DNA of 54,744 bases from positions 1-54,744 of the forward strand of contig WFYI01000024.1 of NCBI GenBank assembly GCA_015490155.1, given 5' to 3'. Position 1 is the stretch's first letter. Each line of letters starts with the position of its first letter. The stretch is from Aquificaceae bacterium (GTDB lineage Bacteria > Aquificota > Aquificia > Aquificales > Aquificaceae). Below, piece by piece: positions 6,572 to 30,633 of the stretch. The notes beneath the pieces were generated by a model. It ran no database searches. It was not told the origin of the DNA and worked only from the letters and a program-made list of their open reading frames with translations. The position numbers and the translations under genes are program-made.

Positions 6572-7276
6572 TCATACACTTATCTTTCTAACGTCAAGGA
6601 AAGAGCCACTTTCAAAGCTCAGGAGTTTGGGAAATATGTCGAACAACAGCCGAGCAGCCTCCTCGGGAGTTCTTTTGGAAGATTCCCTTATTCTTTTTAT
6701 CGAAGTGTACAAAGTGTCATCCTGAGCCATCACCTCCTCGAGCATTGGGGTGAGAACAAGCCCCGGGGCAAGAGCGGTTATGTGCGTTTTATCCATCTCC
6801 CTCGAGTAAAGCTTGAGTAAGCAGTTGAACGAAGCCTTTGATATAGAGTATGCGTTCCAACCACGGTTGCAGTTCACAGCCGCCCCTGAAGATATGCCTA
6901 CTATCTGGTTAATCTCTACGCCAAGCTCCATTAAGGAATCGAGAATTAATTTGTTAGCCCATAGGTTCACGTTCATAACCCTGTCCATCTCTTGAAGAGA
7001 CACGTCACTCATATCACCAAACTTACCGAGTATACCTGCGTTTAGAATAACTATATCGATACGATTTAGATTCCCTAACAGAGAGTAAACGGCAGTTTTG
7101 ACATTCTCAAGCTCTTCTAAATCACACCTTACGAAGTTTACTTTACCGCGAAGCTCTTCCGGCAATCGCCTGCTGAGGGCGTAAACCTCGTATCCCCTTT
7201 CGATAGCCTCTGATACGAGAGCCTTACCTAATCCTGAGCCTATGCCCGTTATAAACGATTTTTTAGACAAAGACAT
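6572..7276 (-). CDS. Short-chain dehydrogenase/reductase
   Basis: A 234-residue SDR counted from ATG 7276. It has the Rossmann motif TGIGSGLGKAL, the NAGIL strand, active-site Ser in GISSGAA and the YxxxK pair in NAYSISKAS. The TGxxxGxG motif fits an NAD(P)H-dependent SDR of about 240 residues. The ATG at 7276 gives MSLSKKSFITG directly before the Rossmann fold; an upstream TTG at 7294 is less likely. It overlaps the queH 3' end by 14 nt. The substrate is unknown. Confidence 0.85.
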   Translation of the reverse strand: MSLSKKSFITGIGSGLGKALVSEAIERGYEVYALSRRLPEELRGKVNFVRCDLEELENVKTAVYSLLGNLNRIDIVILNAGILGKFGDMSDVSLQEMDRVMNVNLWANKLILDSLMELGVEINQIVGISSGAAVNCNRGWNAYSISKASFNCLLKLYSREMDKTHITALAPGLVLTPMLEEVMAQDDTLYTSIKRIRESSKRTPEEAARLLFDIFPKLLSFESGSFLDVRKISV

Positions 7277-8525
7277 TTTGCCTGTAATCCACAAACTCGT
7301 TTACATCAACGCCTGTAAGCTCCTTAAAGAACCTGCTACCGAGACGCCCGAAGGACTCTGCCCCTAAGATAAGAACCGAAAGCCTTCCCGTAGCTATGTC
7401 CTTCGAATAAGAAGACAAAAGCTCCTCTACAAAGGATTTGCTCACCCCTGCACCGTCCTGAAGTGTATCTGCAGGAATCCCAACTCTTCTCTCAGCTTCC
7501 ACGTTCCCTATCACCATTAACCTCGAAACGGAACTTCTGAACTCTGTCTTTAGAGTTGCAGTCACCCTGCTGTTTAAAAACACATCTCTGTACTCGTATG
7601 GGACTAAAAAGGTAGGGTGAGTAGTTAGCTTAGGCTCTCTGAGTGGTATGTCCTGGAACGGCTCAAGGAGTTTTATCTTTACATACTGCTTGCTAAGGTA
7701 AAGCTCGTCTCCCACATGTTTGTAAACCTCTCCCTTTGCTACCCCCCTTATAGATTGGGAGTAAGGTTCTACAAAGGAAGGAATTATCTTCTTATCTATC
7801 TCGACCTTACCTTCAAGGAGAAACCAGTTCAGAAAAGGAAACTCAAACTCCTTTACCGGCAAGGATAGCTCTTCTGCAAACGCCCTTATGGACTTTATAA
7901 AAAGCGTCTCTTCCTTCGAGCCAGGCTGCCTTCCGCTACAGGAGACCAAATCCCACACCGCAAGCTCTCCCTTTTGATTGAACAAGCCGTGAACACAACC
8001 GCAGTAATCCTGATGGTAAATCTCCCTATCCTTAGAAAGTGTAAACATCTCTTGTGTACCACCGCCCTTGCGGTAGTTGAGTGCCAGAAATGATATAGAG
8101 TACTTCTCAGCTATCTCTTCCCCACTCTCCTTCAACTGCTCAAATTTCTTTTTGGGGCTCATGAGAAGTGTTGTAGTAAAGGTGGTAAAGCCCTCTTCCT
8201 TCGCAAACTTAGCAGAGCGTTCAAGCCTAAAGTCAAAACAGAGCTTACACCTTTCTCCCCTTTCAGGTTCCTTTTCATAGCCCTTGACTTTTTCCATCCA
8301 TGCCTCAACATCGTACTCTCCTTCCTCAAGCTCTATACCGAGTTCGTTGCATACCCTTTGGGTTTCCACGTACCTTAGCTTGTATTCCTCGTAGGGATGT
8401 ATGTTGGGGTCGTAGAAAAAGCCCTTAATGTAGGCATGGGGAAAATCCTGCCTAAGTCTTTTTAGGAAGTATACCGCATCCGGGGCGCAGCATATATGAA
8501 CGAGAATTTTACTCAACGTTTTCAC
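7263..8525 (-). CDS. queH: Epoxyqueuosine reductase QueH, long form
   Basis: The N-terminal 190 residues are QueH (DUF208): a Cys-Cys pair in ILVHICCAPDA (C12, C13), CKLCFDFRLERS near residue 93, and YCGCVHGLF near 175. QueH carries a 4Fe-4S cluster and reduces epoxyqueuosine to queuosine in tRNA modification, replacing cobalamin-dependent QueG. A further 220 residues follow without a recognisable family; long QueH forms occur in some other phyla. It overlaps hspR by 17 nt at its start, placing it in the dnaJ-hspR transcription unit. FolE, the first queuosine/folate pathway enzyme, is elsewhere in the window. Confidence 0.88.
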   Translation of the reverse strand: MKTLSKILVHICCAPDAVYFLKRLRQDFPHAYIKGFFYDPNIHPYEEYKLRYVETQRVCNELGIELEEGEYDVEAWMEKVKGYEKEPERGERCKLCFDFRLERSAKFAKEEGFTTFTTTLLMSPKKKFEQLKESGEEIAEKYSISFLALNYRKGGGTQEMFTLSKDREIYHQDYCGCVHGLFNQKGELAVWDLVSCSGRQPGSKEETLFIKSIRAFAEELSLPVKEFEFPFLNWFLLEGKVEIDKKIIPSFVEPYSQSIRGVAKGEVYKHVGDELYLSKQYVKIKLLEPFQDIPLREPKLTTHPTFLVPYEYRDVFLNSRVTATLKTEFRSSVSRLMVIGNVEAERRVGIPADTLQDGAGVSKSFVEELLSSYSKDIATGRLSVLILGAESFGRLGSRFFKELTGVDVNEFVDYRQNVFV

Positions 8526-25856: not shown

Positions 25857-27179
25857 ATGGGAAAAAAGTTCTTCATAAAGACTTTCGGATGCCAAATGAA
25901 CTTCAACGACTCGGAAAGGATAAGGGGTATGCTAAGGGGTATAGGCTACGAACCCACAGATAACTGGGAAGAGGCAGACCTCATACTCCTGAATACCTGT
26001 ACCATAAGGGAGAAGCCAGACCAGAAGGTTTTATCCCACATAGGGGAATACAAGAAGCTAAAGGAGAAGAACCCTAACGCCCTGATAGCGGTTTCCGGAT
26101 GTCTCGCCCAGAGAACCGGCTGGGAGCTGGTTCAGAAGGCTCCGGCGATAGACATAATGTTTTCTTCGTTCAACATGCATCAGCTTCCCGAGCTTATAAA
26201 TCAGGCTCAGGCGGGCTATAAAGCCATAGCTATTCTTGACTCACCCCCGGAGGACGAGGACAAGGTCTGGGAGTTCCCCACGGAAAGGGACAATCCCTAC
26301 TGCGCATACGTAACGATAATCAAGGGGTGCGATAAGAACTGTACCTACTGCGTAGTTCCCAGAACGAGGGGTAAAGAGCGCTCAAGGAGCTTGGAAAGTA
26401 TCCTTGAGGAGGTAAGAAGGCTCGTTGATGACGGGGTTCGCGAGATACACCTGCTCGGGCAGAACGTCACCGCTTGGGGAAAGGATTTTGATAAACCCGT
26501 TTCCTTCTCCCATCTACTTTACGAGGTATCCAAGATAGAAGGTGTGGAGAGGATAAGGTTCACTACGGGACATCCAACGGACTTAACCGACGATACCATA
26601 GAAGCCATGGCCGATATACCTCAGGTTTGCAACGCCCTCCACCTACCCTTTCAGGCGGGTTCCAACAGGGTGCTTGAGCTTATGGACAGAAAGTACACGA
26701 AGGAGTTTTACCTTGAGAGGGTAGCAAAGCTTAAAGAGAACGTTCCGGACATAGCCATGTCAACGGACATAATAGTGGGCTTCCCGACCGAGAGCGACGA
26801 GGACTTTGAACATACCCTTGACGTGGTCAGACAGGTGGAATTTGAGCAGATTTTCTCCTTTAAGTTCTCTCCCAGACCCGGCACACCGGCGGAGAGTATG
26901 GAAGGTCACGTTCCAGACGAGGTAAAGACCCAAAGGATGAGCAGGCTCTTGAGCCTTCAGAAATCCATAATGGGTAAGCTAAGCTCAAGGTACGAGGGAA
27001 GTGTTCAAGAGGTGTTGGTAGAGGACGAAAAGGACGGGAAACTCGTGGGAAGGACTACCACAAACAAGTGGGTTACCCTTGAAGGAGGTAAGGAGCTTTT
27101 AGGTAAGCTCGTTGCAGTAGAAATAACCAAGGCTTCGCCTTTTAACCTGTTAGGAGAAGTCAGGGAGGTTTTAAGATGA
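25857..27179 (+). CDS. miaB: tRNA-2-methylthio-N6-isopentenyladenosine synthase MiaB
   Basis: A 440-residue radical-SAM methylthiotransferase. The N-terminal domain has the three cluster cysteines (FGCQMN, LNTCTIRE, SGCLAQ at about 10, 46 and 81), the radical-SAM triad is KGCDKNCTYCVVPRTRG (about 157-173), and a TRAM domain ends the protein. It adds the methylthio group at A37 of tRNAs reading U-starting codons. FGCQMNFNDSE identifies MiaB rather than RimO or MtaB. Overlaps the next gene by 4 nt. Confidence 0.96.
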   Translation: MGKKFFIKTFGCQMNFNDSERIRGMLRGIGYEPTDNWEEADLILLNTCTIREKPDQKVLSHIGEYKKLKEKNPNALIAVSGCLAQRTGWELVQKAPAIDIMFSSFNMHQLPELINQAQAGYKAIAILDSPPEDEDKVWEFPTERDNPYCAYVTIIKGCDKNCTYCVVPRTRGKERSRSLESILEEVRRLVDDGVREIHLLGQNVTAWGKDFDKPVSFSHLLYEVSKIEGVERIRFTTGHPTDLTDDTIEAMADIPQVCNALHLPFQAGSNRVLELMDRKYTKEFYLERVAKLKENVPDIAMSTDIIVGFPTESDEDFEHTLDVVRQVEFEQIFSFKFSPRPGTPAESMEGHVPDEVKTQRMSRLLSLQKSIMGKLSSRYEGSVQEVLVEDEKDGKLVGRTTTNKWVTLEGGKELLGKLVAVEITKASPFNLLGEVREVLR

Positions 27180-27664
27180 TAGAGATGAGCGTTCACGGGG
27201 TTACCCTTGACCCTGTATCTCAAATGCCCATAGTTGTTCTAAAGGCCAAAGAAGATGAGGATATAGTTCTCCCTATATGGATAGGAGCCTTCGAGGCTAA
27301 CGGTATAGCTATGAGACTCCAAGACGTGGAACCACCGCGTCCTATGACATACGAACTGCTTAGGAGTGTGATAACTGAACTCGGAGGGCATGTAGAGAGT
27401 ATCCACATAAACGACCTCAAGGACAGCACTTACTACGCGCAGGTTTACATAATACAGGGGAACAACAGGATAGTAGTGGACTCTAGACCGAGCGATGCTA
27501 TAAACCTCGCCCTCAGGTTTGATGCACCCATATACGTGGCGGAGGAAGTTCTTGAAAAATCAAGAGTCCCCGAACCGGAGGAAGAATCGGAAAAGAAGGA
27601 GCTAAGGGAGTGGCTTGAGAACATAAGACCCGAAGACTTTGAAGCTGGCGGAGAGCGAAGCTAA
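27176..27664 (+). CDS. Bifunctional nuclease family protein (DUF151)
   Basis: A 162-residue BFN/DUF151 protein: HGVTLDPVSQMPIVVLK, VLPIWIGAFEANGIAM, THELL-like YELLRSVI, and the conserved DSRPSDAINLALR. Members have reported DNase/RNase activity and are linked to stress or, in archaea and thermophiles, nucleotide metabolism. The Glu-rich tail (about 130-160) is acidic. Translation is coupled to miaB by ATGA. Function in this organism is inferred from family only. Confidence 0.88.
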   Translation: MIEMSVHGVTLDPVSQMPIVVLKAKEDEDIVLPIWIGAFEANGIAMRLQDVEPPRPMTYELLRSVITELGGHVESIHINDLKDSTYYAQVYIIQGNNRIVVDSRPSDAINLALRFDAPIYVAEEVLEKSRVPEPEEESEKKELREWLENIRPEDFEAGGERS

Positions 27665-27673
27665 AATCTTTAT

Positions 27674-29122
27674 ATGGCTTTTAAGAGTCTCCGAAACTTC
27701 GTTAAAGCCCTTGAGAGGGAAGGAGAGCTTGTAAGGATACAGGAAAAACTCTCCCCTATCCTCGAGATAACCGAGGTGATAGATAGGGTGTCCAAGATGC
27801 CCGGAGGAGGAAAAGCTATCCTCTTTGAGAACCTTGATGGGTACGAGATACCCATACTTGCCAACACCTACGGCTCTTACAAGAGAATGAAGATGGCTCT
27901 GGGATACGATAACCTTGAGGACATAGGTTGGAAGCTCTACAGGATACTCAGACCGGAGGTTCCCAAGACATTCCTTGAAAAGCTCAAAAGGCTTCCAGAG
28001 CTGAAGAAGATGAACGATGCCATACCCAAGACGGTAGGTAAGGCTCCTGTTCAAGAGGTGGTGAACAGGGATGGTGACATTCTTTCCCTTCCTATACCCC
28101 AGTGCTGGCCCCTTGACGGCGGAAGGTACATAACCTTCGGACAGGTTATAACCCAAGACCCCGAAAGCGGTATAAGGAACGTGGGGCTTTACAGAATTCA
28201 AGTTCTCAGTCCCAAGGAGCTGGCACTTCACTGGCAGATACACAAGCACGGCAACCATCACTACTGGAAGGCGAAGAGCTTGGGTAAAAAGTTGGAGGTG
28301 GCTATCGCCTTAGGGGGTGAGTCTCCCTTACCTTACGTGGGTAGCGCACCCTTGCCGCCGGAGGTGGACGAGTACCTATTTGCCGGTATAGTGATGGAGA
28401 GACCCGTAGAGCTTGTTAAGGGGATAACTATAGACCTTGAGTACCCAGCCAACGCGGAGATAGTGATAGAGGGATACGTTGACCCCTCCGAGGAACTCGT
28501 GGACGAGGGACCCTTCGGAGACCACACGGGCTATTACACACCTGTGGATAAGTACCCTAAGATGCACGTCACCGCGATAGTTCACAGGAAAAACCCCATA
28601 TACCTCCACACCATAGTCGGTATCCCGCCGCAGGAGGACAAGTATCTGGGCTGGGCTACCGAGAGGATATTCCTGCCCCTGATAAAGTTTAACCTACCGG
28701 AGGTGGTGGACTATCACCTGCCCGCCGAAGGGTGCTTCCACAACTTCTGCTTTGTGTCCATAGATAAGAGGTTCCCCGGACACGCCTACAAGGTCGCCTA
28801 CGCCCTGCTGGGAATGGGGCTTATGTCCTTGGAAAAGACCATCGTGGTGTTTGACAGCTGGATAGATGTCCACGACATAGAGCAGGTTCTCTGGGCTTGG
28901 GGAAACAACGTTGACCCTGCGAGGGACGTTCTGATTACCAAGGGTGCAATAGACGTTCTTGACCACGCCACCAACGAGATGGGATTCGGGGGAAAGATGA
29001 TAGTGGACGCAACTACCAAGTGGAAGGAAGAGGGCTACACCCGTGAGTGGCCCCAGGTGATAGAGATGTCAAAGGAAGTGAAGGAGAAAATTGACGCCCT
29101 GTGGAATAAATTAGGTATATGA
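27674..29122 (+). CDS. UbiD-family prenyl-FMN decarboxylase
   Basis: A 482-residue UbiD-like enzyme: SLRNFVKALEREGELVRI start, FGQVITQDPESGIRNVGLYR, HKHGNHHYWKA, the central EGPFGDHTGYYTP region (DEGPFGDHTG) with the catalytic Glu, and HNFCFVSIDKRFPGHAYK. Family enzymes use prenylated FMN made by UbiX to decarboxylate unsaturated or aromatic acids. Ubiquinone or menaquinone-type biosynthesis is the default guess, but many UbiD relatives act on other acids. Overlaps the following HepT-like gene by 4 nt. Confidence 0.92.
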   Translation: MAFKSLRNFVKALEREGELVRIQEKLSPILEITEVIDRVSKMPGGGKAILFENLDGYEIPILANTYGSYKRMKMALGYDNLEDIGWKLYRILRPEVPKTFLEKLKRLPELKKMNDAIPKTVGKAPVQEVVNRDGDILSLPIPQCWPLDGGRYITFGQVITQDPESGIRNVGLYRIQVLSPKELALHWQIHKHGNHHYWKAKSLGKKLEVAIALGGESPLPYVGSAPLPPEVDEYLFAGIVMERPVELVKGITIDLEYPANAEIVIEGYVDPSEELVDEGPFGDHTGYYTPVDKYPKMHVTAIVHRKNPIYLHTIVGIPPQEDKYLGWATERIFLPLIKFNLPEVVDYHLPAEGCFHNFCFVSIDKRFPGHAYKVAYALLGMGLMSLEKTIVVFDSWIDVHDIEQVLWAWGNNVDPARDVLITKGAIDVLDHATNEMGFGGKMIVDATTKWKEEGYTREWPQVIEMSKEVKEKIDALWNKLGI

Positions 29123-29982
29123 AGACTAAGAAGAAGAGCTTTAAGATAAGTTTGATAATAGAGGCTTTTCAGAACCTTGAAAAGTCCTACGTAGACTTGA
29201 AGAAGCATGTTTCCCTCCCAAAAGAGGAGTTTGTAAACAACAAACTGGTGTTAGACAAAGTCAGGATAGACTTCAACTTAGCCTTTGAGAGCTGTATGCG
29301 TGTGTGTAGGCACGTGTCCGCGGTGCTTAACCTAAAGACAGGCTCAAAGGACTGCCTTTACAAACTTGCCCAGCACTTGGGAATGGAGGATGCGGAAAGG
29401 CTCAGGAGGTTTTCGGAGTTTTACTTCAAGTACAGAGACCTAAAGGACGCCGTATCACCGGAGGAGCTTTACGAGTTTCTAAAGAGAGACCTTATCCTGT
29501 TCAAAGAGTTTGCAAGGCTCGTTGTTGAGTACATAAAAAACTCCACCGGCAACCGCCTGCTCATAGACTTTGACCTTTTACGGGAAAAAAACTTCTACAT
29601 CAAGGATTCTATAAAGAAGATAAACTTCACGCTCTCACAGGGGCTTGAGGAGTTCAAGTCCAAACCGATGTACTACGATAGGACTAAGTACTTCTATCAG
29701 GTGGCTTACGATTCCCTATTTGATATATGTAAGCACCTCGCACCCAAGTTCGGGATAAAGAAGTTCGGAGACGATTGTTTGTCAAAGATGGTTGAGGCGG
29801 GGGTAATACCCGACTCATACTACATGGATGTTTTAAAGATGACCCAGCTTAAGAACAAGCTCATAAGCACCTGGGAGGTATCACCGGAGGAGCTATATAG
29901 GGAACTGGAAGAAGTAGCTCCAAAGTTTCAAGTCGTAGTAAAGGAAATATCTGATAGCCTCAAGAAACTCCTACAGGGTTAG
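29119..29982 (+). CDS. Tandem HepT-like (DUF86) protein with degenerate active sites
   Basis: A 287-residue helical protein that appears to be two HepT/DUF86 domains in a row. Repeat one (about 44-145) has RIDFNLAFESCMRVCRHVSA, then FYFKYRDLKDAVSPEELYEF. Repeat two (about 190-287) has TKYFYQVAYDSLFDICKHLA, then MTQLKNKLISTWEVSPEELY. HepT toxins carry RX4-6H-X-Y near this helix; here the positions read RDLKDA and KNKLIS, so His is missing in both. No MntA-type antitoxin is adjacent. Coupled by 4 nt overlap to the UbiD gene. A structural or binding role is more likely than toxicity. Confidence 0.68.
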   Translation: MKTKKKSFKISLIIEAFQNLEKSYVDLKKHVSLPKEEFVNNKLVLDKVRIDFNLAFESCMRVCRHVSAVLNLKTGSKDCLYKLAQHLGMEDAERLRRFSEFYFKYRDLKDAVSPEELYEFLKRDLILFKEFARLVVEYIKNSTGNRLLIDFDLLREKNFYIKDSIKKINFTLSQGLEEFKSKPMYYDRTKYFYQVAYDSLFDICKHLAPKFGIKKFGDDCLSKMVEAGVIPDSYYMDVLKMTQLKNKLISTWEVSPEELYRELEEVAPKFQVVVKEISDSLKKLLQG

Positions 29983-29993
29983 TTAAGAATTAA

Positions 29994-30022
29994 TTGCAAT
30001 TTATATTTATTTGCAATAAAAT
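29994..30022 (+). promoter_or_regulatory. Promoter with repeated TTGCAA before the DUF3501 gene
   Basis: TTGCAA (29994-29999) and TAAAAT (30017-30022) are 17 nt apart. A second TTGCAA (30011-30016) abuts the -10 box, so two self-complementary hexamers lie 17 nt apart, one and a half helical turns; the second could be a regulator site. Confidence 0.5.
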
Positions 30023-30045
30023 ATTTATGTAGGAGGTTCCGAGAG

Positions 30046-30633
30046 ATGAGAAAGGTTAAAAAGGAAGACATACTGAACCTTTACGAGTACGAGAAGGTAA
30101 GGGACGAAAAGATAAGAGAGATTGCGCGGAAGAAAAAAAGGAGAAGGATACAAGTCGGAGACAAGGTGACCCTCGTCTTTGAGAACTACGATACGGTATG
30201 GTTCCAGATACAAGAGATGATAAGGGCGGAGAGAATGGTCAAGGACGAGGAGATACAGTTCGAGATAGACACTTACAACGAGCTTATACCGGAGAAGAAC
30301 CAGCTATCATTCACACTCTTTATAGAAATCCCCGACGAGCGGGAGAGGAAACGCGAACTACCGAAACTCGTAGGTATCCACAACAGCGTTTACATGCACA
30401 TAGGTAATAAGTACACGGTAAGGGCGCAGGCTGAGGAAAGGAGCGACGAGGACTTTGAAACCGGCAAGGCGGCGGTAGTCCACTTCATGAAGTTTGACCT
30501 TACACCCGAACAGGTGGAAGCCTTTAAGAGGGAAACAGTTAGGATAGAGATAAACCACGAAAACTACAAAGCCATGACCGAGATACCCCCGGAGGTAAAG
30601 GAGGAACTCATAAGGGACTTGGAAACCGATTAA
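30046..30633 (+). CDS. DUF3501 family protein
   Basis: A 195-residue protein matching DUF3501: start RKVKKEDILNLYEYEKVRDE, then VGDKVTLVFENYDTVWFQIQ, IDTYNELIPEKNQLSFTLFI and a C-terminal acidic helix. In other bacteria the family often accompanies rubrerythrin or GlpC-like Fe-S proteins, which are not here. It has its own promoter and a GTAGGAGG ribosome site and stands as a single gene convergent with the transglycosylase gene. The molecular function is unknown. Confidence 0.8.
   Translation: MRKVKKEDILNLYEYEKVRDEKIREIARKKKRRRIQVGDKVTLVFENYDTVWFQIQEMIRAERMVKDEEIQFEIDTYNELIPEKNQLSFTLFIEIPDERERKRELPKLVGIHNSVYMHIGNKYTVRAQAEERSDEDFETGKAAVVHFMKFDLTPEQVEAFKRETVRIEINHENYKAMTEIPPEVKEELIRDLETD

What the first reader, a model, noticed from the sequence alone, without database searches (positions are those of the whole stretch)
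29119..29982. Two HepT-like domains fused in one protein, both lacking the catalytic His
The two halves align to each other (FESCMRVCRHVSA with YDSLFDICKHLA; SPEELYEF with SPEELYRE) and to HepT toxins, but the RX4-6HxY motif is missing in each, and no nucleotidyltransferase antitoxin is nearby. Coupled translation with a UbiD decarboxylase is unusual. This looks like a HepT fold domesticated for another purpose.
Basis: partly seen in the sequence, partly recalled or inferred. Interest (0 to 1): 0.7.

Follow-up and report, generated by a model that had tools for sequence, protein, structure and literature searches.

The report
Fused, disarmed twin HepT toxin domains
Nearly every heat-loving bacterium in two families of the Aquificota keeps one copy of a protein made of two fused copies of a bacterial RNA-cutting toxin domain that have both lost their cutting residues, so a former toxin seems to have become a housekeeping protein whose job is still unknown.

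Summary
Window 29119-29982(+) encodes 287 aa with two PF01934 HepT-like domains. The halves resemble each other (BLASTP 9e-10, hhalign 9.5e-12), and AlphaFold2/Foldseek match HepT toxins for the whole model and for the weaker N-half. The catalytic His is absent in 140 of 140 domains from 70 distinct relatives, but present in 35 of 35 single-domain HepTs compared. The HxY tyrosine and the Legionella Mg2+-site glutamate are also never present. The genome has no MNT antitoxin.

The ubiD coupling is incidental: it occurs only in the window's own genus. The real pattern is wider. The double gene is a single-copy, vertically inherited core gene of two families of one order: 62/64 and 35/41 genomes, and 20 of 20 assemblies in at most 10 contigs. 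dN/dS is about 0.05-0.08, like ubiD. No other double was seen in 391 genomes, plasmids, phages or viral contigs.

Each half keeps an invariant His and Cys (C-x-H...C or C-H...C), inherited from an active HepT subfamily. Best reading: a domesticated, non-catalytic pseudo-toxin acting by binding, with RNA the leading but unproven ligand. Domain order may be swapped between the families (suggestive only). New variant of a known kind.

The parts
29119..29982 (+). Double HepT-like (pseudo-toxin) gene, 287 aa
   Evidence: ORF; two PF01934 domains; conserved in two families; AF2 pLDDT 93.3
29179..29514 (+). N-terminal HepT-like domain (residues 21-132), diverged
   Evidence: PF01934 22 bits, E 1.4e-4; N-half AF2 model matches HepT toxins in PDB at TM 0.68-0.84, probability 1.00
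29599..29949 (+). C-terminal HepT-like domain (residues 161-277), better conserved
   Evidence: PF01934 53.8 bits, E 2e-14
29305..29313 (+). N-half C63-R64-H65 on the second long helix
   Evidence: His invariant in all 70 N-halves; C-x-H in 50/50 of family f1, C-H in 20/20 of family f2
29353..29355 (+). N-half C79, second invariant cysteine
   Evidence: Invariant in all doubles
29431..29454 (+). N-half degenerate active-site loop YRDLKDAV (no RX4-6HxY)
   Evidence: Aligned to the single-domain HepT RX4HxY loop
29728..29736 (+). C-half C204-K205-H206
   Evidence: C-x-H invariant in all 70 C-halves
29776..29778 (+). C-half C220
   Evidence: Invariant
29851..29877 (+). C-half degenerate active-site loop KNKLISTWE (R to K, H to S, Y lost)
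29119..29122 (+). ATGA overlap with the upstream ubiD (27674-29122); a local association, not a family feature
   Evidence: Sequence; also in L034 of the same genus; ubiD not adjacent in any other genus

Best explanation
The gene encodes two HepT (HEPN) domains fused head to tail, which would let one chain mimic the HepT homodimer. It descends from a HepT toxin of the subfamily that carries C-x-H...SYxECF. Both known HEPN chemistries and the AMPylation tyrosine are gone, so it is neither a classical RNase toxin nor a substrate of MntA (shown at sequence level). It has been fixed as a single-copy housekeeping gene in two families of one order (shown) and kept under strong purifying selection (shown in f1). 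It most likely works by non-catalytic binding in the inter-domain cleft, with RNA the leading candidate ligand. The invariant Cys/His residues of each half would form a structural disulfide or a metal/thiol site (all of this is inferred).
For: Domains and fold. Catalytic His 0/140, HxY Tyr 0/140 and Legionella E47-equivalent Glu 0/140, against 35/35, 35/35 and 28/35 in single HepTs. The Q44/E47 mapping follows from the alignment to 8xdj. Near-universal single copy: 62/64 and 35/41 genomes, 20/20 assemblies in at most 10 contigs. No MNT in the own genome or in one-contig genomes G009 and G051. dN/dS 0.05-0.08 in most pairs, against 0.06 for ubiD. Not found in plasmids, phages or viral contigs. 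The HEPN survey PMC3710099 predicts that HEPN domains without the motif act as nucleic-acid-binding domains.
Against: No partner or ligand is known and no neighbour is constant. RNA binding rests on fold analogy. Whether the two domains pack like the HepT homodimer was not tested; pTM 0.83 says only that their packing is defined.
Confidence: 0.6

Rival explanations
1. A non-catalytic protein-protein adaptor or scaffold: the fold is kept, but the ligand is a protein and not RNA.
For: Loss of all known catalytic residues; HepT itself makes large protein assemblies (hetero-octamer in PMC7641770); invariant Cys/His could be structural.
Against: No constant neighbour points to a partner.
Confidence: 0.22
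2. Still an RNase, with a relocated active site built from the invariant His (H65/H206) and nearby residues.
For: PMC3710099 notes HEPN proteins that lack the canonical His but have a conserved His elsewhere that could contribute to activity; the Legionella HEPN uses a non-canonical site (PMC11586414); H65 and H206 are invariant in 140/140 domains.
Against: The same His is also found in active HepTs of the parent subfamily (L073, L112, L114, L115), so it is inherited and not new. An unrestrained RNase in every genome with no antitoxin would be costly.
Confidence: 0.13
3. An antidote or decoy: a dead twin that hetero-dimerises with active HepTs or captures MntA.
For: Many family members do carry MNT-HepT modules; in G077 the double gene directly overlaps such a module.
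Against: The own genome and one-contig genomes G009 and G051, plus high-completeness G024, G025, G026, G040 and G043, have the double protein but no MNT. The Y that MntA modifies is lost. The sister genome of G077 has no module beside it.
Confidence: 0.04
4. An accessory of the UbiD (menaquinone) decarboxylase.
For: Translational coupling (ATGA) to a UbiD of TIGR03701 here and in L034.
Against: UbiD is adjacent only in the window's own genus; other genera have MnmG, ClpC, LpxC, RuvA, a phosphodiesterase-like gene or a short-chain dehydrogenase next to it.
Confidence: 0.03

Closest known systems
HepT toxin of type VII HepT/MntA toxin-antitoxin systems (PF01934; SO_3166, PDB 5yep, 6m6w)
   Same: Fold of each half; sequence family; nearest structures
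   Different: Two domains in one chain; catalytic His and AMPylated Tyr lost; no MntA; core gene and not an accessory module
Single-domain active HepT of family f5 (L073 6845-7273) with its MNT (L073 6484-6882)
   Same: Closest relative found in the phylum; shares C-x-H...ECF
   Different: Keeps RNLLIHMY and an adjacent MNT; 142 aa; scattered in occurrence
Swt1-type inactive HEPN dyads of eukaryotes (PMC3710099)
   Same: Two HEPN domains in one protein, inferred inactive, proposed to bind RNA
   Different: Different HEPN family, fused to a PIN nuclease; here there is no other domain

Membership tests
PF01934 HepT-like domain family | Pfam profile match over the full domain | tested here: met
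   Whole protein 71 bits against cutoff 23.5; C-half 53.8 bits; N-half alone 22 bits, slightly under the cutoff
PF01934 HepT-like domain family | HEPN all-helical fold | tested here: met
   AF2 plus Foldseek: the probability-1.00 matches are HEPN/HepT-family structures
HepT RNase toxin (type VII TA, NF047751) | RX4-6HxY active site | tested here: not met
   His 0/140 and Tyr 0/140 domains
HepT RNase toxin (type VII TA, NF047751) | Curated NCBIfam score of 60 bits | tested here: not met
   48.9 bits over both halves
HepT RNase toxin (type VII TA, NF047751) | Adjacent MntA-type nucleotidyltransferase | tested here: not met
   None nearby or in the genome; absent in other complete genomes with the double gene
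Mg-dependent HEPN of the Legionella type (PF08780-like) | Q44/E47 metal ligands on the second helix | tested here: not met
   Equivalent positions are I50/N53 and Y191/Q194; Glu in 0/140 domains
HEPN RNA-binding protein | Binds RNA | not testable with these tools
   Needs experiment

The most novel reading that the evidence does not exclude
A toxin turned essential housekeeping gene: in the last common ancestor of two families of one order, a HepT domain was duplicated, disarmed and fixed as a pseudo-RNase that binds cellular RNA (or senses metal/redox through its invariant Cys/His sites). The order of its two domains was later swapped, or a longer array trimmed, differently in the two families.
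Probability: 0.28. Interest if true: 0.75.

Novelty: new variant of a known kind. Interest (0 to 1): 0.52.

Why it matters
Toxin-antitoxin modules are usually patchy and mobile. A HepT that lost its chemistry, doubled and became a single-copy core gene of two families in one order is a clean case of toxin domestication. It offers a hyperthermophilic, probably stable protein on which the non-catalytic function of HEPN folds can be tested directly. It also warns annotation pipelines not to call these genes toxins.

Tried and rejected
UbiD partnership as a family trait: rejected. MNT decoy: rejected as the main role, since MNT-free genomes carry the gene. Relict Mg-dependent active site: the ligands are not conserved. 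Mobile-element origin: no plasmid, phage or viral hits. PADLOC defence family: none. Double gene in family f3, f4 or f5: not found with the profile in the ones searched (all seven f3, both f4, four f5). Recurrent menaquinone-pathway neighbours (ubiD here, MqnE/CofH-like radical SAM near the gene in L051, L052, L086 and L087, and next to the f5 MNT-HepT): too few independent cases to beat chance by a rough estimate. Same-order orthology of the halves (f1N with f2N) and two separate duplications: neither rejected (AU p 0.066 and 0.073).

Full report
What is there. Window 29119-29982(+) is one ORF of 287 codons whose ATG overlaps the stop of ubiD (ATGA, 29119-29122). Pfam finds PF01934 (HepT-like) twice: the C-half at 53.8 bits, the N-half at 22 bits, and the whole protein at 71 bits. 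The two halves match each other with BLASTP E 9e-10 and hhalign E 9.5e-12. AlphaFold2, using only homologs from loci fetched with the search for related loci, gave pLDDT 93.3 and pTM 0.83 for the whole protein, and 91.8 and 0.86 for the N-half alone. Foldseek against PDB returned HEPN/HepT-family structures as its probability-1.00 matches in both cases. For the N-half the HepT/HEPN toxin structures 6m6u, 7bxo, 6m6w, 5yep and 7ae6-7ae9, with TM-scores of about 0.68-0.84, make up almost all of the best 25 (YutE, 1ylm, is also among them). For the whole model one domain at a time aligns, with TM up to 0.85 by target length. The Foldseek E-values are modest (0.004-0.2), as expected for short all-helical folds. 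So the fold claim is met for both halves, including the weak one.

Catalytic state. I aligned both halves of 70 distinct double proteins (140 domains) with 27 single HepTs from other genomes and 8 single HepTs from the phylum. The His of RX4-6HxY is absent in 140/140 domains of the doubles and present in 35/35 singles; the Tyr that MntA AMPylates in Shewanella (Y104; PMC7641770) is likewise absent in 140/140 and present in 35/35. Two f1 N-halves contain a chance R...H elsewhere in the segment, but not at the aligned position. A Legionella HEPN uses an alternative Mg2+ site, Q44/E47 (PMC11586414). I located Q44-A-F-E47 in its sequence through the alignment of L090 with 8xdj. In the doubles these positions are I50/N53 and Y191/Q194, and Glu occurs in 0/140, against 28/35 singles. 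Both known HEPN chemistries are therefore gone.

What is kept. Across both families only a few residues are invariant: H65 and C79 in the N-half, and F179, D187, R188, Y191, D198, C204, H206 and C220 in the C-half. Over all 140 domains the His and the second Cys are 140/140. The first Cys is C-x-H in three of the four domain classes and shifted by one residue (C-H) in the f2 N-halves. The nearest active single HepTs (L073, L112 and L115 of f5, and L114 from another phylum) already have C-x-H...ECF, so the trio is inherited from that subfamily and not a new invention. It has nevertheless become strictly fixed. Whether it is a disulfide, a metal site or packing was not tested.

Spread. In the phylum the double gene is present in 62 of 64 genomes of the window's family f1 (including truncated copies at contig ends) and 35 of 41 of a second family, f2. 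All 20 f1/f2 assemblies of at most 10 contigs carry exactly one. The f1/f2 genomes without it are fragmented assemblies. All seven genomes of f3, both genomes of f4 and four genomes of f5 searched with the profile gave no double, and no double appeared among the other f5 genomes in the phylum search. None of the roughly 255 genomes from other phyla in the 391-genome sample had a double among the matches listed: the HepTs there are single (open frames about 105-235 aa). There was no match in plasmids, phages or viral contigs. Record titles place f1 in the Aquificaceae (Aquifex, Thermocrinis).

Selection and context. Pairwise dN/dS is 0.05-0.08 for most pairs, with one low-divergence YN00 estimate of 0.22, against 0.06 for the adjacent ubiD. 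Neighbours change from genus to genus: ubiD only in the window's genus (window, L034), MnmG-PyrF in g5, a YmdB-like phosphodiesterase in g7, ClpC or a short-chain dehydrogenase in g3, LpxC and RuvA in f2 (names from reading the sequences unless cited). No MNT antitoxin exists in the own genome, nor in one-contig genomes G009 and G051, nor in several other near-complete ones that carry the double gene. A toxin-antitoxin role and an MNT-decoy role are both therefore unlikely.

Domain order. A tree of the halves makes each of the four classes a clade and joins f1C with f2N (98/94), i.e. the order looks swapped. The alternatives are not rejected (AU p 0.066 for the same order, 0.073 for separate duplications). 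Profile scores agree with a swap for the N-half: f1N-f2C 109-114, against f1N-f2N 49-52; f1C scores about equally with f2C and f2N. I report this as suggestive only.

How it probably works. The HEPN survey predicts that HEPN domains lacking the motif act as nucleic-acid-binding domains (PMC3710099), and HepT works as a dimer with a cleft between subunits (PMC11586414). The simplest account is a one-chain pseudo-dimer that keeps the cleft and has lost the chemistry, so it binds without cutting. The steps shown are: double fold, loss of all known active residues, single-copy near-universality, purifying selection and independence from MNT. The steps inferred are: dimer-like packing, RNA as ligand, and the role of the Cys/His sites. 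I did not find this family described in the open papers searched, but subscription literature and databases were not searched.

Noticed in passing
f1 versus f2 double proteins (window 29119-29982; L057 6094-6957): The domain order appears swapped between the two families: f1C groups with f2N (98/94; AU p 0.066-0.073 for the alternatives). This could mean circular permutation, or different trimming of a longer array.
   Followed up: partly
L071 6041-7577 (genome G077): An MNT-HepT pair (7290-7577 and 6892-7299, HepT with intact RX4HxY) lies directly upstream of, and overlaps, the double HepT gene (start near 6904); the sister genome L072 has no such module there.
   Followed up: no
L073 4248-8891 (family f5): An MNT-HepT pair sits between two CofH/MqnE-like radical SAM genes and dnaX, all overlapping or close; MqnE-like genes also lie near the double HepT gene in L051, L052, L086 and L087.
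   Followed up: partly
window 25857-30633: Run of same-strand genes MiaB-like, BFN-nuclease-like, UbiD (TIGR03701, 611 bits), double HepT, DUF3501 (1e-64), with ATGA overlaps between the first two and between ubiD and the double HepT.
   Followed up: partly
L034 7936-8811: The only other genome of the window's genus (G063) shares the ubiD-double HepT ATGA overlap but has a different downstream gene (BioF-like, not DUF3501) and, unlike the window's genome, carries seven MNT matches.
   Followed up: no
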